DNA of 23,943 bases from a virus, in the IMG/VR virus record IMGVR_UViG_3300023284_000224, positions 1-23,943 of that record; one strand, given 5' to 3'. Of the stretch, positions 3,019 through 23,943 are shown piece by piece. The notes under the pieces were generated by a model. That model searched no databases. It was not told where the DNA came from and worked only from the letters and a program-made list of their open reading frames with translations. The number at the start of each line of letters is the position of its first letter. Position 1 is the first letter of the stretch. The translations under genes and the position numbers were made by a program.

Positions 3019-3053
3019 AGCACAGCAAGGCGTTGATCTTAAGCGTCCTTTTA

Positions 3054-3080
3054 GCCCACCCTTCGGGGTGGGTACTTTTT
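3054..3080 (+). terminator. Rho-independent terminator after the capsid gene
   Basis: A 7-bp GC-rich stem (CCCACCC/GGGTGGG) with a TTCG tetraloop is followed, two bases on, by TTTTT at 3076-3080. It lies 35 bases past the capsid stop. Genes continue rightward, so it probably works as a partial terminator or RNA 3'-end stabiliser that boosts capsid mRNA over downstream genes. Confidence 0.88.
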
Positions 3081-3093
3081 AGGGAGATCATTA

Positions 3094-3117
3094 ATGGCCG
3101 AGTTTTTAAAGGATTGA
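3094..3117 (+). other. Seven-codon leader ORF, possible gene-start relic
   Basis: A good ribosome binding site (AGGGAG, 3081-3086) precedes an ATG that encodes only MAEFLKD before a stop; the next ATG is one base past the stop. The first four codons match those of the gene at 3309 (MAEF). This reads either as a translated leader coupling into the gene at 3119 or as a leftover copy of the 3309 gene start. Confidence 0.45.
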
Positions 3118-3118
3118 A

Positions 3119-3641: not shown

Positions 3642-3880
3642 TCCCAAACCAGCGAATTAATGGTTTTCTTTCTCACCAGGAAGCTCTTGAAGAATGTGAT
3701 CTTCGCAATCAACGAATTGCAAAACTGCAAAGAGAGGTTTCATTTCTTAACGATGTAATAGAGAATTTTGAAGAAGATCTTATGATGACCTCGCCAAAAC
3801 TTTATGAGGCTGCTTGTAACAAATGGATTGAACTACGTGATGAGCATTATCCAGAAGAAGTAGAAGAAGTAGATGACTGA
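3611..3880 (+). CDS. Coiled-coil hypothetical protein, 89 aa
   Basis: The first ATG lies 31 bases inside the previous gene; no strong ribosome binding site is visible, so coupling is likely. Residues 22-55 are heptad-like (L, I, F spaced among charged residues) and the tail is acidic (E/V/D repeats). No metal-binding or membrane motifs are present. The gene is AT-rich relative to the following glycosyltransferase gene and overlaps it by 8 bases. It resembles small accessory (moron-like) proteins scattered through this operon. The function is unknown, and the exact start is uncertain. Confidence 0.55.
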   Translation: MQSNQPQDSLIPNQRINGFLSHQEALEECDLRNQRIAKLQREVSFLNDVIENFEEDLMMTSPKLYEAACNKWIELRDEHYPEEVEEVDD

Positions 3881-5351
3881 TGCTCTGAGAGACAAAGAAC
3901 TAGCCCACGCCAGGGCCGCCTCCAATAAGGGTGATTGGGAGCAGGCTTACGACATAGCGTACAAGTGGCTTAAGCTCGATCCAACGGATGCTGACGCACT
4001 CAATGTTATTGCCCATATCATGCTCAACACCGATAAGGTGGCGATAGCCTATCCCCTGTTGAAACACTTATTGACCCTGGCACCGACCAACTCTCTGGCC
4101 TGGTTGAATATGGGCATGGCGGCCTCTGATTTATGGCGTTATAACGAGGCCATAAGATCGTATAAAAAGGGCATTAGGTTTGCCAAGGATGATCGTCAGA
4201 AGTCCATGCTGTGCGTAAACATGGCCTCTGTGATGGTCGATCACGGTCAGTTCGAACAGGCTGAGCCTTATTGCCTTAGGGCGATTGAACTGCAACCGGA
4301 CACCGTTAAGGGCAAGGCGAATTTAGGCTTCTGTCAGCTTGCCCAACGCAACTGGGATGGCTGGAAGAATTATCGTTATTGTATAGATACCGAATGGCGT
4401 CCGCTGATTCAGTATAATGACGAACCACTATGGGATGGCAAAGAAAAAGGCAAAATCTGTATTTATTCTGAACAGGGTCTGGGCGATGAGATTTCATTTG
4501 GGCAGATGTTGCCGGACATGAAAGCATGGTGTGATGCTAATGACTCGACCCTGGTTGTTGATGTCAATCCGCGCCTTGAGAGTTTGTTCAAACGCAGCTT
4601 CCCGGACATTGAAGTTCATGGCACACGAGGCATTAAAAAGATCAGCTGGGACCCACGGGATATCAAGTATTCCTTGCCGATGGCACAGCTGGGCGAGTAC
4701 TTTCGCATCAGGGATGAGGACTTTACCGGCAAGCCCTATCTTGTTGCTGATGCAGACCGGGTGTGGCAATGGCTATCTTTGTTTGACACTAAGAAAAAGC
4801 CTGTCATCGGACTGGCTTGGCGATCAGGCGTCTGGAAGACCGGTGCCAAGTATCGGCAGCTGGACTTAGAACAGTTGTTGCCCATACTAGAGTCGGTTGA
4901 TGCACATTGGGTATCACTGCAATACAAGTCCGCTGCCAAGGAAATTGCCGCTTTCAAAAAAGAGCATCCCGAGATAGATATCGTTGAGTATCCGTTCTGT
5001 ACCTTATCGAACGACTTCGACGATACGGTGGCCATGATTGCCACACTTGACATGGTTATTTGCATGCACACCACCGTGGTTCATGTTGCCGGAGGCTTGG
5101 GCATACCATGCTGGACTTTTGTACCGAAGTCCTCTCAATGGCGCTATGGTCAACAAGGTGAAGACCTGCCGTGGGCCGAATCGGTGAGAATCATACGTCA
5201 GACAAAGCACGGTGAATGGGCTGATGTAATGCAGAAAACAGGAGAAGAACTTGCACCCTTCAGAAAGAATGTTGATGGAAAAGGGACTTCGTTGGCACAT
5301 GCCGTATCGAAAAAAAGGGTTAACGGTAGTGGGGACAGGGCTTCCGCTTGA
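3873..5351 (+). CDS. TPR-glycosyltransferase fusion (GT9/GT41-like fold)
   Basis: This 492-residue protein has two parts. Residues 7-155 are about four tetratricopeptide repeats (D-W-E-Q-A, L-D-P-T-D-A-D-A-L, Y-N-E-A-I-R-S-Y-K-K-G, G-Q-F-E-Q-A-E-P-Y). Residues 185-450 look like a GT-B glycosyltransferase: L-W-D-G-K, then I-Y-S-E-Q-G-L-G-D-E-I-S-F near 198-209, I-G-L-A-W-R-S-G near 317, and the heptosyltransferase-like C-terminal M-H-T-T-V-V-H-V-A-G-G-L-G-I-P. TPR-GT9-like fusions transfer sugars to protein or glycan acceptors. It opens a sugar/methyl-transfer cassette inside the virion operon, so virion glycosylation or host-surface modification is inferred. The sugar donor is unknown. The last 30 residues are basic and not part of the fold. 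Confidence 0.82.
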   Translation: MTDALRDKELAHARAASNKGDWEQAYDIAYKWLKLDPTDADALNVIAHIMLNTDKVAIAYPLLKHLLTLAPTNSLAWLNMGMAASDLWRYNEAIRSYKKGIRFAKDDRQKSMLCVNMASVMVDHGQFEQAEPYCLRAIELQPDTVKGKANLGFCQLAQRNWDGWKNYRYCIDTEWRPLIQYNDEPLWDGKEKGKICIYSEQGLGDEISFGQMLPDMKAWCDANDSTLVVDVNPRLESLFKRSFPDIEVHGTRGIKKISWDPRDIKYSLPMAQLGEYFRIRDEDFTGKPYLVADADRVWQWLSLFDTKKKPVIGLAWRSGVWKTGAKYRQLDLEQLLPILESVDAHWVSLQYKSAAKEIAAFKKEHPEIDIVEYPFCTLSNDFDDTVAMIATLDMVICMHTTVVHVAGGLGIPCWTFVPKSSQWRYGQQGEDLPWAESVRIIRQTKHGEWADVMQKTGEELAPFRKNVDGKGTSLAHAVSKKRVNGSGDRASA

Positions 5352-16527: not shown

Positions 16528-16856
16528 TGAAGTGGCTCAAGTCACTGAGTTGGGTTGCAATCGCTGGAGCAATAGGCACCGCAATTATGATGATTTTAAA
16601 TGCCCGCCGTGCTGGTGCAATGGAAGCAACAGTCGCGCATCACGAGGATCACATCAAAGAGCTTCAGCAAGGATCAGCAGTAGATATCCAGGAAGCTAAG
16701 AAGTTGCAATCCAATATTACTGCCAAGAAGATCAAGGCACGAACAGTCAGAAAGAAGTCCGAGGCAAGTATGGAGAGGTTAGGTCAAGATGAAACAATGG
16801 CTGATATTGCAAAAAGATTTAACGGAAAACGGGTAAGGCGTAGGTCAAGTTCGTGA
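16524..16856 (+). CDS. Inner-membrane spanin-like protein (Rz-like topology)
   Basis: This 110-residue product has one N-terminal membrane segment (residues 8-25, with W-V-A-I-A-G-A-I-G). A charged coiled-coil (40-85) and a basic C-terminus (K-R-V-R-R-R-S-S-S) follow. This is the architecture of i-spanins, which link the inner membrane to an outer-membrane lipoprotein partner at the last step of lysis. It comes right after the holin. The last residues lie over the 3' end of the antisense HNH gene (12-base overlap). This suggests the endonuclease gene was inserted exactly at the end of this gene without breaking it. The identity as spanin is inferred from topology. Confidence 0.6.
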
Positions 16857-17261
16857 GTTTCGTCTGTTTGCTTGTTGTTGCTTACGTGTTGCCCAGCGGC
16901 AATTTTCAGGTGAGTAATCACTGTCATTATCAATTCTGTCGATTGTGTGTTTTTTAGTAGGCGGGTAACCCATATCTTTGAAGAAGTGTTCAAAACTATG
17001 AACCCAACGATCACAAACTTTTATGCCTCTATCTCCGTAATATTTTCGGTATTGATAATGGTTACTGTAGCAGCGCTGTTTTATATTTATCCATGTTGTA
17101 TAAATTCTAGTTCTGCTCATACCGTGAGTTGTACTATTTAGTCGGCTAATGGAGTAATTGAGTTTATGAACATTTCCATGCCTCTTTTTTCGCCAGTAAT
17201 GCATACTACAAAGGCGTTTTGCTTTGGTTGGTTTCGAGCAGTTTTTTATAGAACATTTCAT
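16845..17261 (-). CDS. HNH-type homing endonuclease-like protein
   Basis: This is the only leftward gene in the late region. The 138-residue protein has an N-terminal C3/C8/C18/H21 finger-like unit (C-x4-C-x9-C-S-M-H-Y-W-R). The centre is aromatic ([13 protein letters not shown]), followed by an HNH-like block H105-T-I-D-R-I-D-N-D...[10 protein letters not shown]. These are features of phage free-standing HNH endonucleases that spread by cutting DNA lacking them. There is no Shine-Dalgarno sequence before its ATG; an extended -10 sequence lies just upstream. The region is AT-rich compared with the lysis genes, consistent with acquisition. The nuclease activity is inferred from the motif. Confidence 0.83.
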
Positions 17262-18561: not shown

Positions 18562-18972
18562 TCAAGTCTGTGGTTCTTCCCATTTGTCCTGGCAATCTGG
18601 ACATTCAATTTCCCGACCATACTGAATGGCATTCGGGTGCTTACAGGGTTCGTGTTCTTCCGAGACAGCGGCCTTGATCTCATCTCTGGTGAATCTCTCA
18701 GACTCGCAAGCGGCTGGCTGAACCTGTCGGGTGGAATCAGAGTCAATTCCCATTGCTTTTCTCATCTTGCTACAATAATTACAGCGATGTTGTGTCGCTG
18801 AATCCCACGGAAGACGGTATCCAATACAATCTCTGCCGCTACAGACATGAGTGCTCATTGAGACCAGATCATAAACGGCCTGGAGGCGTGAGTTCTCAGC
18901 AGTCAAAGTCGATACAAGTTCTCGCAAGTGATCTATTTCAGACAAGCAAGCATCAGTGCTTGGACGTTTCAT
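18562..18972 (-). CDS. Multi-Cys zinc-ribbon-type early protein, 136 aa
   Basis: I start at the ATG at 18972, which overlaps the stop of the upstream gene (ATGA), rather than at an upstream ATG. A short Leu-rich coiled coil (residues 10-35) is followed by C-S-G-R-D-C...C-N-Y-C and, at the end, C-K-H-P-N...C-P-D-C: two candidate zinc-binding units. The last one resembles the N-terminus of the product at 20117. The protein is soluble and probably made early. It may bind nucleic acid or a host protein; no enzyme motif is visible. It is the promoter-distal gene of the leftward operon. Confidence 0.65.
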   Translation of the reverse strand: MKRPSTDACLSEIDHLRELVSTLTAENSRLQAVYDLVSMSTHVCSGRDCIGYRLPWDSATQHRCNYCSKMRKAMGIDSDSTRQVQPAACESERFTRDEIKAAVSEEHEPCKHPNAIQYGREIECPDCQDKWEEPQT

Positions 18973-19199
18973 TCTTGATTGCCTGAGACAGCGGCATTCT
19001 TTTTGGCGCACCATTCGCATTGTTGCAATTCCGCATTAGTAGATGACATCTTGATCATGTAGGCCCCGGAACCATCACAGTTGGGACATTGGGCAGCATT
19101 GAGTAAGCCAATTAAAACTCTGACTTCACAAGACAGTCTCTTATTTTCCCGTGTTAGCCGAATAATCTCATCAGTCCTAGCCATCTGGATATCATTCAT
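18969..19199 (-). CDS. Small DnaJ-type Cys-pair protein, 76 aa
   Basis: The protein has a basic helical/coiled-coil N-terminus (I-I-R-L-T-R-E-N-K-R-L), then C-P-N-C-D-G-S-G-A-Y, a C-x-x-C-x-G-x-G unit like that of DnaJ zinc centres, and a second pair C-E-W-C. Together they would make one four-Cys zinc site. A GAGAGA-type ribosome binding site lies about ten bases upstream. Its stop overlaps the next start. I recall similar small phage proteins but not a function. It follows the 28-codon membrane peptide gene after 12 bases. Confidence 0.65.
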   Translation of the reverse strand: MNDIQMARTDEIIRLTRENKRLSCEVRVLIGLLNAAQCPNCDGSGAYMIKMSSTNAELQQCEWCAKKNAAVSGNQE

Positions 19200-19211
19200 T
19201 TTTTATTCTCT

Positions 19212-19298
19212 CTAAGTCAAAATCACCGCAGCAATAACTATGGCCCAAGCAATCGCCCACAAGCCACGGCTGATGAAAAGCGCAGCCTTGTCGCTCAT
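19212..19298 (-). CDS. 28-residue membrane micropeptide
   Basis: This small gene reads MSDKAALFISRGLWAIAWAI then eight more hydrophobic residues and a stop. Residues 5-27 form one membrane helix with two Trp; the N-terminus is charged. Evidence that it is real: its ATG overlaps the upstream stop (ATGA), as in nearly all genes of this operon, and the next gene follows 12 bases after its stop. A perfect 8-bp-stem hairpin ends right at the base before its ATG. It may act on the inner membrane or on a host membrane protein. No experimental function is known to me. Confidence 0.6.
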   Translation of the reverse strand: MSDKAALFISRGLWAIAWAIVIAAVILT

Positions 19299-19597
19299 TT
19301 CTGACCTTGTCTGGTCAGAAGCAGCTTGATCCAATGATTATGTTCGGCATCCACACATTTGATCCAGTCCTGATGCGTCAAACCTGAACAAACCGACTCC
19401 GGCTGCTTTTCAAGATGACAGTCTGGACATCTGCCAAGTTCTGAATGGCTTGGTGATTTAATCACCGGCTGTTTGAGCACAAGCGGTTCAACCATGCCGA
19501 GCATGAACAAAATATACAGGCTGAATCCACCGACAACTGCTCCGATGATTGCAGCAATCAGCACTTCTGTTTCGTCCCTTAGCTTTGGCATGTTCAT
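19295..19597 (-). CDS. Membrane protein with Cys-pair tail, 100 aa
   Basis: The start at 19597 overlaps the previous stop (ATGA); a second ATG two codons on is possible. One long hydrophobic stretch (residues 13-34, A-A-I-I-G-A-V-V-G-G-F-S-L-Y-I-L-F-M) is followed by a soluble tail with C-P-D-C-H-L-E-K and further Cys residues (C-S-G, K-C-V). The Cys-pair tail may bind zinc. An inner-membrane location with the tail inside or outside cannot be decided. Its stop overlaps the start of the 28-residue peptide, suggesting the two membrane proteins are made together. Confidence 0.62.
   Translation of the reverse strand: MNMPKLRDETEVLIAAIIGAVVGGFSLYILFMLGMVEPLVLKQPVIKSPSHSELGRCPDCHLEKQPESVCSGLTHQDWIKCVDAEHNHWIKLLLTRQGQK
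19299..19320 (-). promoter_or_regulatory. Hairpin abutting the micropeptide start codon
   Basis: TTCTGACC and its complement GGTCAGAA form an 8-bp stem with a six-base loop. On the leftward transcript it ends at the base before the ATG at 19298, so it would cover the ribosome-landing site. It may make translation of the micropeptide depend on ribosomes finishing the upstream gene. Confidence 0.55.
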
Positions 19598-19968
19598 GTG
19601 GTGCTGTTCCCGGCGGACTCAAGCGCCTCGGCCGCAATCTTGCCGACACCCTCAACCACATGCCGCATATTGCTGGCGCTCACTCGGCTCAATATCTTGC
19701 TGCCGAGCATTCGATCCACTTCTTTCCAGTTAGGCTCGGGAAATACTTTCAGCGGGTATGCATTTGCCCAATTGACAACTTGTTGTAGGCTATCCTCAAT
19801 GGCATAGATACGGTCCTGCGCCTGTTCCAGTGCGTCAGCAACATGACCGTAATCATCGAGTAACATTTTGTATTGAGTCCACCCGACATCATCCTGCATA
19901 TCGTCAGGACAGTTATCTACGTCGTGATAATGACAAAGTTCTGAATGTTTTTCTTTATGGTCAGTCAT
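19594..19968 (-). CDS. Hypothetical early protein, 124 aa
   Basis: The start overlaps the stop of the 51-residue gene (ATGA) and its own stop overlaps the next start (ATGA). The N-terminus has H-x-C-H-Y-H and D-N-C, a possible metal site; residues 45-65 are helical (A-D-A-L-E-Q-A-Q-D-R-I-Y-A-I-E-D). The end is helical and Ala-rich. I do not recognise a family. It is part of a chain of small, coupled early genes and is probably a host-takeover or accessory protein. Confidence 0.6.
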   Translation of the reverse strand: MTDHKEKHSELCHYHDVDNCPDDMQDDVGWTQYKMLLDDYGHVADALEQAQDRIYAIEDSLQQVVNWANAYPLKVFPEPNWKEVDRMLGSKILSRVSASNMRHVVEGVGKIAAEALESAGNSTT

Positions 19969-20120
19969 CCTGTTGTTCTCTCGATAATCACATCATCGCC
20001 CTCTCGCCAGTGGAGCCGGAAGCCACGCCAGTGATGCTGCTTCATGTAATCTCGGATCTGGTTGAGGCTCCATCCGGTGCAATCGACATAACGAATGAAG
20101 GGAATTACTTGTGCGGTCAT
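19965..20120 (-). CDS. Short basic protein, 51 aa
   Basis: A 51-codon leftward gene fills the otherwise empty stretch between its neighbours, with ATGA overlaps at both ends. The product begins M-T-A-Q-V-I-P-F-I-R-Y and has a basic, aromatic middle (K-Q-H-H-W-R-G-F-R-L-H-W-R) before an acidic patch and V-I-I-E-R. The exact fit of both ends to the neighbours is strong evidence for a real gene. The basic/aromatic middle suggests nucleic-acid or protein binding, but no function is known. Confidence 0.65.
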   Translation of the reverse strand: MTAQVIPFIRYVDCTGWSLNQIRDYMKQHHWRGFRLHWREGDDVIIERTTG

Positions 20121-20458
20121 TCTGGTTCCTGATCAGGCTGGACAGAAACCAGATTTACTAATCCACCTTCGGTTGGGTTTACTGGCCCCCATAGTGCATC
20201 GTGAGCAATTTGCAATGCAGCACGAAAATCTGAAATTCTCCGGCCTGTAGCACTATCCGTATGCTGTTCACCGATTCTCAATATATTTCGGAGCGCAGTT
20301 TCGTATTCTTTTTTAGTGCCGATGGGTTTTGCGGACCGTAATGCTCCAACTTTGTCGTCGTCTATTTGCTGTTCGCAATCTGGACACCATTCAAATTCGT
20401 TACCAAGCCTATCTCGGTCTGTATAAACATTTTCATGCTTGCATTGTTTATAAGTCAT
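20117..20458 (-). CDS. Zinc-ribbon early protein, 113 aa
   Basis: The N-terminus carries C-K-H-E-N-V-Y...W-C-P-D-C, a Cys/His set suited to one zinc ribbon. The middle (K-K-E-Y-E-T-A-L-R-N-I-L-R-I-G) and the following D-F-R-A-A-L-Q-I-A-H-D-A-L are helical. The C-terminus is hydrophobic/polar without structure hints. The start overlaps the nuclease stop (ATGA). The zinc part resembles that of the protein at 18562, suggesting a shared domain. The function is unknown. Confidence 0.65.
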   Translation of the reverse strand: MTYKQCKHENVYTDRDRLGNEFEWCPDCEQQIDDDKVGALRSAKPIGTKKEYETALRNILRIGEQHTDSATGRRISDFRAALQIAHDALWGPVNPTEGGLVNLVSVQPDQEPE

Positions 20459-21126
20459 TTTGCTCGTTTCTCTGTTTGCTGTTGAAGACGATAGAGTTTC
20501 ACCATCTGTGGAAATGCTGCAACCTGCTCGTCGAGTTCCGGGTAATAACGATGCACGAAATCTCCAGTATCCTTGGCAAAACGCACCACATGAAACCCTT
20601 TAATCTTAATCTCTGGAAAGTTTTCCTCAACAATGATTTTGTAAGCAGCAACCTGGAATAATGCAGATCCGAACACGCCTCCGGTCTTCCAGTCCAGAAT
20701 CACATGATTGCCCTGATGGTCTTTGCCTAGGGCATCCGGTGTACCGCCGCACTGCATATTCTCGGATACTAAAGGTTTCTCGGTCCAGACGATTTCCATG
20801 TCAATGCCTTCAAACCATTGAATAGCCGCTTTTTGTGCTGTCTGTGCTTTGGTGATTTCTCCGACTTCGTAATTGTCAAAGCTAACACTGGGAAATGACT
20901 CGTCATTCATGCAGTTCTGATGCAGGTATTGCTCAAACAAATCGTGGCCCAAGGTGCCAATGTTAGCGGCTTTGGTGTACCACTCGTCCTGTATGTTCTT
21001 ACCGTTCAGACCGAGCCTGTTGGCTGCATAAATGATGCCACCCTTGTCACCAAACCAGCTCAATGCGGTCGTAACGCCTGAGACACGCTTGCCGTTGGTG
21101 TTCTGATAGCCTGTTTTTGGTCGCAT
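20455..21126 (-). CDS. PD-(D/E)XK nuclease (RecB/Cas4-like)
   Basis: This 223-residue protein has the ordered motifs of the RecB-like PD-(D/E)XK group: G-T-L-G-H at 57-61, G-G-T-P-D-A-L-G with D131, I-L-D-W-K-T-G with D145 and K147, and Q158...Y162 on the following helix. The metal site would be H61, D131, D145 and K147. Such phage enzymes are exonucleases or recombination nucleases working with an ssDNA-binding/annealing protein, here probably the product of 21785. No Cys cluster for an iron-sulfur centre is visible, unlike many Cas4 proteins. It overlaps both neighbours (TGATG and ATGA). Confidence 0.85.
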   Translation of the reverse strand: MRPKTGYQNTNGKRVSGVTTALSWFGDKGGIIYAANRLGLNGKNIQDEWYTKAANIGTLGHDLFEQYLHQNCMNDESFPSVSFDNYEVGEITKAQTAQKAAIQWFEGIDMEIVWTEKPLVSENMQCGGTPDALGKDHQGNHVILDWKTGGVFGSALFQVAAYKIIVEENFPEIKIKGFHVVRFAKDTGDFVHRYYPELDEQVAAFPQMVKLYRLQQQTEKRAK

Positions 21127-21413
21127 CAGGGTTTCCCCGCAAGGCCGCAGTAGCCAGCAGGCTTACCTTTTTGCGGAACATGCACAGCAGTTGTCATCGC
21201 TGGGTCAGGTTCGGGCAAAAACTCATTATCTGTTGCTCGCCACGCCATGCACTCAGAGCCAATACATTTTGATTCGTTTGCAAAACTAAACTCATTATCT
21301 GCATCTGCTTCGGCCATACGATTACCAATTTCTTGCCAGTTATTCCCGTCAGCGATAAATACTCGCGTGAACGGACACCACTTGGTTTTGGTTTTGGCTT
21401 CTTCTTCGGTCAT
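21126..21413 (-). CDS. Cys-rich phage protein, 95 aa
   Basis: The protein has a K-T-K-W-C-P-F opening, a central C-I-G-S-E-C-M-A-W-R and a late G-Y-C-G-L-A-G-K-P, giving four Cys in fixed surroundings. I recall this pattern in a small family of phage early proteins of unknown role. Four Cys could bind zinc. It lies between a small hypothetical gene and the PD-(D/E)XK nuclease, with one-base overlaps on both sides (TAATG and TGATG). It may work with the nuclease, but that is an inference from position. Confidence 0.68.
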   Translation of the reverse strand: MTEEEAKTKTKWCPFTRVFIADGNNWQEIGNRMAEADADNEFSFANESKCIGSECMAWRATDNEFLPEPDPAMTTAVHVPQKGKPAGYCGLAGKP

Positions 21414-21646
21414 TAAGATTCCTCATCATCGCTCAAGGCTTTCGGTGTCTCAATAGTCAGCATTGGACTATTGATTCCATTTAGAGCTTCAGCTGCCGCT
21501 GTATTGGCAACAGCCAGCGCCGTTACTGCAGCACAAACCTCGCCACTTGGCGATCCGTTAAATGTGCATCCTTCGATGCGAGTGCCGGTCGATACCAGAT
21601 CGCGCAGCAAGTCGTTTTCTTTCTGTAAATCATCTTTTATTTTCAC
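21413..21646 (-). CDS. Hypothetical helical protein, 77 aa
   Basis: This starts at a GTG preceded by GGAG with seven-base spacing, and ends in a TAATG overlap with the next gene. The N-terminus is a short charged coiled coil (K-E-N-D-L-L-R-D-L); residues 38-55 are Ala/Val-rich (V-T-A-L-A-V-A-N-T-A-A-A-E-A-L) and the end is acidic. No family is recognised. It is the first gene after the structured spacer at 21647-21784, so its expression may depend on that RNA. Confidence 0.58.
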   Translation of the reverse strand: MKIKDDLQKENDLLRDLVSTGTRIEGCTFNGSPSGEVCAAVTALAVANTAAAEALNGINSPMLTIETPKALSDDEES

Positions 21647-21784
21647 TACTTATCTCCACAATAATTCAATGACCCGTTGTCGGAGTAACTCCGAGTGCGG
21701 CCAGGTGGGTCAGTCCTGTTCTTGGGCGCATCCCAGCGGAAGGTAAGGATGCTGGCTGCCGCTTTTTTGACCTGCGAGGTCAAA
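21647..21784 (-). other. Structured 138-bp intergenic spacer
   Basis: There is no gene here, but several inverted repeats: TGACCC/GGGTCA (21670-21675 with 21707-21712) enclosing a perfect 7-bp-arm hairpin TCGGAGT/ACTCCGA (21680-21694); GCATCC/GGATGC (21728-21733 with 21747-21752); and an 8-bp-arm hairpin TTTGACCT/AGGTCAAA (21766-21784) starting right after the stop of the upstream gene. No poly-T follows any of them in the leftward direction. It could be an RNA processing site, regulatory leader, small RNA or protein-binding region. Confidence 0.55.
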
Positions 21785-22429
21785 TTAGAACGGAATAGAT
21801 TGATCGTATTCATCGTATTGATCGCCCAGTGCTGGCATAGACTGATCCTGAGATTCCGCTGTGCCTTGCATTGCCAGTGCAGCGCCTTGCTCTATTTTCT
21901 TGCTCATCCATTCCGGTAATTTTGCCAGATTGCCGATGGTTGAGTCATCATGCGGTGAATACTTCAACAATTCGCCCTCACGATCCGGCACCTCTGTACC
22001 TTTCGGACAGCGCATGATGGCGGCAATGTTGGCATAGGTTTTTGTACCGTCTGCCGAGGTGTTGTGAACCACCGAGATCATGCAGGGTGCGTCCAGCACA
22101 TTGAACAGATCCCAACCCTCCAACTGCTTTTCAGTGAAGGCCCGACCACGCCAGGATTCGAGCGCCTTGCGCAGATTGGCCTTCTCGTTGAGCGAGTTGG
22201 TGAAGCGCTGACCGATCAGTGCTGGCCCCTCATGGTGTTTATCGTCCTTGTCAGTCCACTCAACGCGCACAGCAGCGACTTCAAAGCCTAAATAAACCTG
22301 GCTCTTGGGTTCCCACTTGGTCTCCTGCAGGCCGAAGTCAACCACGCTGATACAGCGGGCGACATATGAGCCAGCTGGAACAGGGTCAAAGTCACCTGAC
22401 CCTCCGGTGTTCTTGCTTAATAAAGGCAT
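21785..22429 (-). CDS. ssDNA-binding/replication protein, NGO0469-like
   Basis: The 214-residue protein opens with L-L-S-K-N-T-G-G-S-G-D-F-D-P-V-P-A-G-S-Y-V-A-R-C, continues with N-S-L-N-E-K-A-N-L-R-K-A-L-E-S-W-R-G-R and L-F-N-V-L-D-A-P-C, and then has V-V-H-N-T. This is the pattern of the NGO0469/DUF669-type phage replication proteins thought to bind single-stranded DNA. The last residues, D-E-Y-D-Q-S-I-P-F, resemble the acidic C-terminal tip of bacterial SSB (D-D-D-I-P-F). A very strong GGAGGAG site lies just before the ATG. It has spacers on both sides, unlike the other genes of the operon, so it is probably expressed strongly and separately. Confidence 0.76.
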   Translation of the reverse strand: MPLLSKNTGGSGDFDPVPAGSYVARCISVVDFGLQETKWEPKSQVYLGFEVAAVRVEWTDKDDKHHEGPALIGQRFTNSLNEKANLRKALESWRGRAFTEKQLEGWDLFNVLDAPCMISVVHNTSADGTKTYANIAAIMRCPKGTEVPDREGELLKYSPHDDSTIGNLAKLPEWMSKKIEQGAALAMQGTAESQDQSMPALGDQYDEYDQSIPF

Positions 22430-22591
22430 TTTATCTCCTCCGATTTTTTGCCTGTGAAATGATTTGAAGGTGGCTCAAGGTGTTCACTGCTACCTTACGG
22501 CTCCACAAGGAACGCATTCGGGCTACCTTACCCCTGATCCCCACCCAAGGGTGTTATAGAGATTTAGAACCACCATCAAATCACTCCATAT
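22430..22591 (-). other. Structured 162-bp leader before the ssDNA-binding gene
   Basis: No gene is present. An inverted repeat of 14 bases with one mismatch (22460-22473 with 22570-22583) encloses 96 bases. Inside are a CUUG-loop hairpin (CACC/GGTG) near 22541-22552 and two direct copies of GTAAGGTAGC (leftward; 22522-22531 and 22489-22498), 33 bases apart. The GGAGGAG ribosome binding site (22433-22441) is outside the closed unit. A weak promoter-like TATAAC (22553-22558) with TTGATG 15 bases away is present but unconvincing. The layout suggests a folded RNA leader. Confidence 0.6.
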
Positions 22592-22894
22592 TTAGTCCTC
22601 GTCAGTGTCACTTCCGTTGAGCCAATTGCTGACTGCTTCCGGTGAGCCCCAAATTCCAGATGCTCGACCGGGTGCGTAGTTATAGAGCCACATCACATAA
22701 TGGTGCATCGAATGTTTGTTTGTCTGATCAGCAAACATGAATGCTGCCATGAGATCATTTTCCAGAACCGCCCGCAGAAAGTCACCAGTTGGAATACGTT
22801 CATTGAAGTAACGGATTAGACCACCCTGCATATAATCAGGAATGCCAACTTCGGACATTTTCCCAATTGCCTCATCGTTTAATTGAATGCTCAT
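22592..22894 (-). CDS. Small phage early protein, 100 aa
   Basis: The product has I-P-D-Y-M-Q-G-G-L-I-R-Y-F, then P-T-G-D-F-L-R-A-V-L-E-N-D-L-M-A-A-F-M-F-A-D and, near the end, N-Y-A-P...W-G-S-P-E-A-V-S-N-W. I recall this as a small conserved phage family whose members sit in early regions; the function is not established. It has no Cys or membrane segment. The start overlaps the previous stop (ATGA). It is the last gene before the folded leader of the ssDNA-binding gene. Confidence 0.7.
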   Translation of the reverse strand: MSIQLNDEAIGKMSEVGIPDYMQGGLIRYFNERIPTGDFLRAVLENDLMAAFMFADQTNKHSMHHYVMWLYNYAPGRASGIWGSPEAVSNWLNGSDTDED

Positions 22895-23142
22895 TTATAC
22901 GGATACTCCCCGTTGGTTTGCTGTTCGATGTATTCCTCGTCCTGATTTATTGATTGCCACCAATTCAGAGTCTGTTCGTTTTCTTCGGCATCTTGTTCGT
23001 CATTAATAAGCGTAGCAAGATGTTTTTGTGCGGCACTTTTCGTTTCGAACCATCCAGGGATGATTTGCTTATCTTTGCAAATAGCATATCCCTTAGCAGC
23101 CACGCAGGAATTGCTGGTGTTCTTGATGATTTCATATTTCAT
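22891..23142 (-). CDS. Hypothetical protein, 83 aa
   Basis: I place the start at the ATG at 23142, with AGGA about ten bases upstream and 11 bases overlap with the previous gene. The longer frame from 23193 would overlap by 62 bases. The product begins M-K-Y-E-I-I-K-N, has G-W-F-E-T-K-S-A-A-Q-K-H-L in the middle (an R/K-A-x-x-x-L pattern common in short beta-beta-alpha phage proteins), and is very acidic in its last 40 residues. No function is recognised. It is coupled to the next gene by an ATGA overlap. Confidence 0.6.
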   Translation of the reverse strand: MKYEIIKNTSNSCVAAKGYAICKDKQIIPGWFETKSAAQKHLATLINDEQDAEENEQTLNWWQSINQDEEYIEQQTNGEYPYK

Positions 23143-23368
23143 TCTGTGCTGTCCTGTGAGTGCTGAGAAGTTCTTCCTTGGCGTCTTTATCAACTGGTTC
23201 TTGTATTCGTTCGGGCCACCATTCGCGATTGTCTCGTGGTTTGATTTGTCGAATTTGAAATATTGAATTTTTATCGCTAATTATTGGACGCATCCATCTA
23301 TCGGACATTTTGAAACGATTCCAGTACCAACCTGGTATAGTTGGTGCATCTTTTATCCATTCGCTCAT
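23132..23368 (-). CDS. Hypothetical Trp-rich protein, 78 aa
   Basis: The start is the ATG at 23368, overlapping the stop of the previous gene (ATGA), rather than an upstream ATG. The short protein is rich in Trp, with M-S-E-W-I-K-D-A-P-T-I-P-G-W-Y-W at the N-terminus. This recalls the small W...P-x-x-P-G-x-Y-W phage proteins (DUF551-like) of unknown function. The middle has R-E-W-W-P-E-R. No Cys or membrane segments are present. Confidence 0.6.
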   Translation of the reverse strand: MSEWIKDAPTIPGWYWNRFKMSDRWMRPIISDKNSIFQIRQIKPRDNREWWPERIQEPVDKDAKEELLSTHRTAQNEI

Positions 23369-23505
23369 TTCTGTTTCCCTCGTAATTGCTGTCCCACCCG
23401 ATGCCACATTTTCCGATAGCCCTGATCATCGAACTGCTGTTTGCTGTCTGGCAATCCTTGCTGCCGATATCTACGCACGTTCTTTTCGGGTGATGGGGTT
23501 TTCAT
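23365..23505 (-). CDS. Short basic protein, 46 aa
   Basis: I start at the ATG at 23505, which overlaps the upstream stop (ATGA), giving M-K-T-P-S-P-E-K-N-V-R-R-Y-R-Q-Q-G. The protein is basic, Arg/Gln/Lys-rich, and ends R-G-K-Q-K. The longer frame reaching back to 23637 runs through the coding region of the previous gene and is not needed. A small basic protein of this kind could bind nucleic acid. No family is recognised. Confidence 0.55.
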   Translation of the reverse strand: MKTPSPEKNVRRYRQQGLPDSKQQFDDQGYRKMWHRVGQQLRGKQK

Positions 23506-23900
23506 GTTAGGGCGTTTACACAAGCCTCTATGATGGCGCGAGGAAGTGATTCGCTTGACCGATCCAGATAGACGCCATAGGTGGGTGTGGCAGAACTGGC
23601 AACACACGCATCGAATCGTTCTAGTGAAGGCATCCAAGATCCAGAAACACAGCGCAAGTCTATCTTATCGTCTTTGATGGTTTTCTCTATCAGTGCACCA
23701 GCTACCCGCCAGTCACGGACGAATCGTTCTGCAGCAACCGGATAATTGGCTTTTTGTGAGTAATAACGCCGATTTCCATGTTGATCGGTGTCGTAAAGTT
23801 CACCAACCCCAAGCGCCACAACCTGGTCCGCAAGCCACTTGTCGTCGTGTGCCTGATCTGCTTTTGCGGTGACGTTATAGCTGTCTGTTGGGTCAGTCAC
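23502..23900 (-). CDS. Phage ABA-sandwich-like protein, 132 aa
   Basis: The start is the GTG at 23900, overlapping the stop of the upstream gene (GTGA); an ATG further up would run into that gene. The product begins M-T-D-P-T-D-S-Y-N-V, has W-L-A-D-Q-V-V-A-L-G-V-G, R-D-W-R-V-A-G-A-L-I-E-K and a final L-P-R-A-I-I-E-A-C-V-N-A-L. That pattern resembles the phage ABA-sandwich domain (alpha/beta, found in many early regions). The biochemical role is unknown. The match is by memory of the pattern only. Confidence 0.55.
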   Translation of the reverse strand: MTDPTDSYNVTAKADQAHDDKWLADQVVALGVGELYDTDQHGNRRYYSQKANYPVAAERFVRDWRVAGALIEKTIKDDKIDLRCVSGSWMPSLERFDACVASSATPTYGVYLDRSSESLPRAIIEACVNALT

Positions 23901-23943
23901 GATTCCAAATCCCCGCTGCCACACTCAGGACACCAGACCAGTG
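23897..23943 (-). CDS. Partial zinc-ribbon protein, C-terminal end
   Basis: The window ends within this leftward gene. The last residues read W-C-P-E-C-G-S-G-D-L-E-S and stop in a GTGA overlap with the next start. The C-P-E-C-G pair is the second half of a zinc ribbon; the first Cys pair is probably outside. The GTGA overlap supports the frame. Confidence 0.5.
   Translation of the reverse strand, partial: LVWCPECGSGDLES

What the first reader, a model, noticed from the sequence alone, without database searches (positions are those of the whole stretch)
22430..22591. Folded RNA leader before the ssDNA-binding-like gene
In an operon where most genes overlap, the ssDNA-binding-like gene has a 162-base spacer ahead of it. 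The spacer is closed by a long-range inverted repeat (22460-22473 with 22570-22583, 13 of 14 paired), has a CUUG-loop hairpin inside, and carries two exact 10-base repeats 33 bases apart. The very strong GGAGGAG site lies just downstream of the closed unit. This looks like a regulatory RNA, protein-binding leader or processed 5' end. I do not recognise a known riboswitch or ribozyme core. The pairing could also act as DNA, for example an origin or operator beside a replication gene.
Basis: partly seen in the sequence, partly recalled or inferred. Interest (0 to 1): 0.68.

Follow-up and report, generated by a model that had tools for sequence, protein, structure and literature searches.

The report
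Orphan hairpin spacer before phage gene
The gap ahead of a phage gene for a DNA-binding protein very probably folds, as RNA, into one large hairpin-closed unit, but no related phage or other searched genome carries it, so its job (most likely cutting and protecting the messenger RNA) can only be inferred.

Summary
In the RNA of the minus strand, 22567-22588 pairs with 22455-22476: 18 Watson-Crick pairs, 3 G-U pairs and one U-U mismatch. It is the best stem on either strand of the 24-kb window; 0 of 2000 local shuffles and 1 of 40 whole-window shuffles reach it. The spacer folds at z -2.9 on the minus strand, -1.2 on the plus strand. It is the longest of three gaps over 40 nt. Small reading frames inside it score like non-coding DNA.

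The stem's pairing probability is near 1; the inner hairpins, including the CUUG one, are uncertain. The Shine-Dalgarno lies outside the stem. There is no Rfam match and no relative: homologues of the downstream OB-fold protein (94 distinct upstream stretches folded), the nearest capsid relatives and 398 bacterial genomes lack it. Covariation, the decisive test, is therefore impossible.

Best reading (0.42): a lineage-specific intercistronic RNA element whose two-turn duplex is an RNase III-type processing or stability site, giving the downstream gene its own 5' end. Main rival: an operator for autogenous repression, as in T4 gene 32. Modest interest.

The parts
22567..22588 (-). 5' arm of closing stem P1 (UGGAGUGAUUUGAUGGUGGUUC)
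   Evidence: pairing probabilities 0.95-1 for all pairs except the outermost (0.74-0.76) and the U-U mismatch, also in 700 nt of context
22455..22476 (-). 3' arm of closing stem P1 (GAGCCACCUUCAAAUCAUUUCA)
22537..22563 (-). Inner hairpin P2, which can contain CACC-CUUG-GGUG; uncertain, competes with an alternative pairing of 22530-22552
   Evidence: outer pairs 0.54-0.65, CUUG hairpin about 0.2, alternative about 0.25
22520..22533 (-). Inner hairpin P3 (GGGU-AAGGUA-GCCC), contains repeat copy 1; uncertain
   Evidence: probability about 0.5
22497..22517 (-). Inner hairpin P4 (UUCC-UUGU-GGAG core)
   Evidence: core pairs 0.8-0.92
22477..22496 (-). Inner hairpin P5 (AAGGU ... ACCUU), contains most of repeat copy 2
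   Evidence: 0.58-0.81
22522..22531 (-). 10-nt repeat copy 1, GUAAGGUAGC
22489..22498 (-). 10-nt repeat copy 2, GUAAGGUAGC
22430..22454 (-). A-rich linker 3' of the stem with Shine-Dalgarno GGAGGAG (22435-22441)
   Evidence: sequence; in 162 nt alone the SD is mostly unpaired except three G's, in wider context a weak local hairpin takes part of it
21785..22429 (-). Downstream gene: NGO0469-family 'phage replication initiation protein' with predicted OB fold
   Evidence: NCBIfam NF046043 E 6.5e-53, 178.8 bits against cut-off 75; model pLDDT 87, best fold match PrgE, an OB-fold ssDNA-binding protein, Foldseek E 3e-4, Z 7.8
22592..22894 (-). Upstream gene, 100 aa, unknown function; its stop codon lies 3 nt before the stem
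   Evidence: no Pfam or PHROG match; relatives in L037-L039, none followed by a leader

Best explanation
The spacer is a structured intercistronic RNA element in the leftward operon. A 22-position duplex (about two helical turns) closes a domain of about 90 nt of smaller hairpins and fills the gap from 3 nt after the upstream stop codon to just before the A-rich ribosome-binding site. Most likely it works as mRNA punctuation: a double-strand-specific RNase (RNase III type) cuts in the duplex, or the duplex simply blocks exonucleases and ribosome read-through effects, so that the downstream OB-fold protein gets a separate, stable message with an open, strong Shine-Dalgarno. Shown: the inverted repeat, its statistical excess, the strand bias of its wobble pairs, the non-coding character of the spacer. 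Inferred: folding in the cell, cleavage, and any effect on expression.
For: Best stem of the whole window, 0/2000 local and 1/40 whole-window shuffles. Minus-strand fold z -2.9 against -1.2 for the plus strand. Three of the four departures from Watson-Crick pairing are G-U on the transcribed strand; if mismatches were random the chance of 3 or more of 4 being G-U is about 0.016 (my arithmetic). The structure sits exactly in the longest gap of a packed genome and leaves the start site outside it, which argues for punctuation over occlusion. Frames inside the spacer have wrong-frame codon statistics. [quoted passage not shown]
Against: No homologue, so no covariation; no transcript data; RNase III determinants were not tested; the host is unknown. 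About 1 in 40 shuffled windows holds an equal stem, so chance is unlikely but not excluded.
Confidence: 0.42

Rival explanations
1. Translational operator: the OB-fold protein binds its own leader (structured part as nucleation site, A-rich unstructured ribosome-binding region as landing strip) and shuts off its own translation, as T4 gp32 does.
For: Architecture resembles gene 32: a folded 5' element followed by a less structured stretch with the start site (PMC535899). The downstream protein is predicted as an OB fold closest to the ssDNA-binding PrgE.
Against: The structure here is a 22-bp-closed multibranch domain; no pseudoknot was shown or searched for. RNA binding by this protein family is not known. 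About 94 homologous genes have no such leader; but gene 32 leaders also vary, RB49 lacking the pseudoknot (PMC535899).
Confidence: 0.2
2. The stem is neutral: a chance inverted repeat or the decayed remnant of a gene or insertion in a spacer under no selection.
For: Not present in any relative; whole-window shuffles reach the stem score once in 40; three windows fold as well or better after correction for GC.
Against: Local p below 1/2000, exact fit to the only large gap of the operon, G-U bias on the transcribed strand.
Confidence: 0.2
3. A small regulatory RNA of about 90-140 nt cut out of the operon transcript by cleavage in P1.
For: Long closing duplex around a multibranch domain, the arrangement of processed precursor RNAs (general knowledge).
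Against: No conserved core, no Rfam match, no promoter above chance there, inner hairpins not well defined.
Confidence: 0.1
4. A DNA element: replication origin, operator or a terminal-inverted-repeat insertion next to a replication gene.
For: Downstream gene is filed as 'phage replication initiation protein, NGO0469 family', a name that goes back to a weak similarity (PMC1931599). Inverted and direct repeats are present.
Against: No GC-skew switch, only two 10-mers and no iteron array, single copy, no match in phage or plasmid DNA, no clear target duplication, wobble pairs on one strand only.
Confidence: 0.05
5. The spacer encodes small peptides: 17 aa (22523-22576, GGAG 7 nt upstream) and 28-37 aa (stop 1 nt before the next start).
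For: Tight packing of the two frames and start signals; both 10-mers fall in one frame (K-V-A).
Against: Codon scores at the level of wrong frames (only 0.5% and 1.2% of true gene segments score as low), no homologue in the loci fetched; a 28-aa frame in the other gap scores higher.
Confidence: 0.03

Closest known systems
RNase III processing sites between cistrons of phage T7 early mRNA
   Same: Long RNA duplex in an intercistronic gap of a phage operon, start site of the next gene outside it
   Different: Here the duplex closes a multibranch domain of about 90 nt instead of a simple hairpin (T7 hairpin form from general knowledge); cleavage is not shown; single site; no sequence relationship tested or claimed
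T4/RB69 gene 32 leader (autogenous operator with RNA pseudoknot)
   Same: Structured RNA followed by a less structured start region, ahead of an OB-fold ssDNA-binding-type gene
   Different: No pseudoknot shown, no UUAAA repeats, much larger structure, protein of another family
Processed precursor RNAs closed by a long stem (such as pre-rRNA)
   Same: Long closing stem around a multihelix domain
   Different: No known RNA inside; the shared 9-mer with 23S rRNA is what chance gives

Membership tests
Any Rfam family | Match at or above the gathering score | tested here: not met
   None in the window; permissive scan of 401 nt found only a meaningless plus-strand RydC match, 15.3 bits against 48
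RNase III intercistronic processing site | Duplex of about two turns in the transcript between cistrons | tested here: met
   22 positions, 21 pairs on the minus strand, between two genes
RNase III intercistronic processing site | Cleavage by RNase III | not testable with these tools
   Needs RNA from infected cells or in vitro cleavage
T4 gene 32 type autogenous operator | Downstream gene codes for an ssDNA-binding OB-fold protein | tested here: inconclusive
   Predicted OB fold, best match PrgE Z 7.8; binding not tested; Z under 8 may be only a common arrangement
T4 gene 32 type autogenous operator | RNA pseudoknot 5' of an unstructured start region with UUAAA/UAAA repeats | tested here: inconclusive
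   No pseudoknot prediction was made; the linker is A-rich (CAGGCAAAAAAUCGGAGGAGAUAAAAUG) with one UAAA only
T4 gene 32 type autogenous operator | Protein represses its own mRNA | not testable with these tools
   Needs an experiment
Conserved structured RNA family | Several homologues with compensatory changes | tested here: not met
   No homologue found by protein-anchored, pattern, BLAST or covariance-model searches
Intrinsic terminator | GC-rich hairpin followed by a U run on the transcribed strand | tested here: not met
   No terminator-like site there; the stem is followed by an A run on the minus strand
Iteron-type origin | Array of several long direct repeats, often with a skew switch | tested here: not met
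   Two 10-mers only; GC skew negative throughout the operon

The most novel reading that the evidence does not exclude
A new class of phage leader RNA in which an NGO0469-family OB-fold replication protein binds a stem-closed multibranch domain in its own mRNA and controls its synthesis, found so far in one phage lineage only.
Probability: 0.15. Interest if true: 0.5.

Novelty: new member of a known kind. Interest (0 to 1): 0.25.

Why it matters
If the fold is functional, it adds one more case of phage mRNA punctuation or autogenous control ahead of a replication protein, here in an uncultivated SU10-type podovirus-like phage and a protein family with an unproven function. It also shows that such leaders can be lineage-specific: homologues of the downstream gene do without it, so it is not a part of the gene's basic regulation.

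Tried and rejected
Exact-pattern searches for the paired 10-mers or 8-mers in IMG/VR gave coding coincidences, several of them K-V-A peptides; the pattern with the inner stem arms gave nothing. A resemblance of UAAGGUAGC...CCUUG to 23S rRNA helices 69-71 came to mind; it was tested and dropped: local alignment no better than shuffles (120 of 300 as good), and a 9-nt exact match is the commonest value for shuffles. Homologues L089, L096, L108 and L140 fold at z below -3 upstream of the gene; I read L108 and it is coding sequence, the others were not read; none has a stem like this one (scores at most 34 against 43). Upstream-gene relatives are not followed by a leader. Exonuclease-anchored search found no relative. 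The near capsid relatives (80-88%) are fragments, or lack the downstream gene. A single-sequence covariance model has limited reach, and the absence of hits in 398 genomes drawn from one phylum is weak evidence. One leader frame scores mildly positive for codons but has four stops in 53 codons.

Full report
What is there. The window is a 23,943-base virus record with an SU10-type major capsid protein. Genes 18562-23924 run leftwards and are packed. With my gene list only three gaps exceed 40 nt: 3019-3118, 19200-19294 and 22430-22591, the longest. The finding concerns the last one.

The stem. On the minus strand 22567-22588 (UGGAGUGAUUUGAUGGUGGUUC) pairs with 22455-22476 (GAGCCACCUUCAAAUCAUUUCA): 18 Watson-Crick pairs, 3 G-U pairs, one U-U mismatch. 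With a simple stem score it is the best stem of the whole window on either strand. No local dinucleotide shuffle of 2000 reached it, and 1 of 40 shuffles of the whole window did. Folding energy is -54.9 kcal/mol, z -2.9, 1 of 200 shuffles as good; the plus strand has z -1.2. After correction for GC it ranks third among 160-nt windows of both strands. The stem keeps probabilities near 1 when 700 nt of context are folded. The inner part is less certain: P4 and P5 are moderately supported, the CUUG hairpin has a probability of only about 0.2 and competes with another pairing.

RNA or DNA. On the plus strand the three G-U pairs become A-C mismatches. If the four departures were random mismatches, three or more G-U pairs would be expected about 1.6% of the time (arithmetic, not a tool result). 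That and the energy difference favour selection on the leftward transcript. There is no skew switch, iteron array or second copy that would point to DNA function.

Coding? The spacer holds a 17-codon frame with a good Shine-Dalgarno and a 28-37-codon frame ending 1 nt before the next start. Their codon scores (-0.19 and -0.18 to -0.22 per codon) match wrong frames (mean -0.195) and not genes (mean +0.181), and no homologue appears in 1 Mb of fetched loci. The frames are short, so this is strong but not absolute. As a comparison, a 28-aa frame in the other gap of the operon scores +0.089.

Neighbours. The downstream protein is an NGO0469-family protein. The name 'replication initiation' rests on weak similarity in the original annotation, whose authors suggested a primase (PMC1931599). 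An AlphaFold2 model (pLDDT 87) has an OB fold; the best match is PrgE of plasmid pCF10, Foldseek E 3e-4 and Z 7.8, an OB-fold protein that binds ssDNA and dsDNA (PMC11137577). So 'ssDNA-binding-like' is reasonable, not proven. The upstream gene has no known family.

Conservation. Homologues were fetched from viral contigs (80 kept of 427) and from genomes (27). Of the 80 viral loci most have the gene overlapping or within about 30 nt of the previous one, and none has the 10-nt motif or leader. Of 94 distinct upstream stretches none has a comparable stem, and no DNA match or covariance-model match was found. The nearest homologue, L041 at 49% identity, overlaps its upstream gene. Near capsid relatives are fragments or lack the gene.

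Mechanism. The start site lies outside the closed unit, and the unit begins right behind the upstream stop codon. That suits a site which separates two messages: cleavage by RNase III or protection from exonucleases. [quoted passage not shown] An autogenous operator like that of T4 gene 32, a pseudoknot followed by a weakly structured start region (PMC535899), with RNase E processing 71 nt upstream (PMC3014915), is the main alternative because the downstream protein may bind single strands. I give 0.42 to punctuation, 0.2 to autogenous control, 0.2 to a neutral stem, and the rest to a released small RNA, a DNA element or small peptides.

Verdict. Observation confirmed; interpretation as a folded RNA leader plausible and favoured; function undecided; no known RNA family; no relatives.

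Noticed in passing
window 3019-3118: Directly after the capsid gene lies a strong hairpin followed by U's (CCCACCCTTCGGGGTGGGTACTTTTTAG), looking like an intrinsic terminator behind the major capsid gene; lowest GC-corrected folding energy of the window.
   Followed up: partly
window 19212-19298 (-): The only other large gap of the leftward operon holds a 28-codon frame, MSDKAALFISRGLWAIAWAIVIAAVILT, with the look of a small single-pass membrane peptide.
   Followed up: partly
window 16845-17261 (-): A 138-aa frame on the minus strand between rightward late genes reads like an HNH-type endonuclease (judged by eye from the sequence; no family search).
   Followed up: no
window 3917-4073 (-): Second-best stem of the window (score 41), antisense inside gene 3873-5351.
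   Followed up: no
L129/L130 (IMGVR_UViG_3300044676_006277): A phage with 80% identical capsid protein has no detectable homologue of the downstream OB-fold gene in its 33-kb record: the replication module appears to be exchanged between close relatives, although the record may be incomplete.
   Followed up: partly
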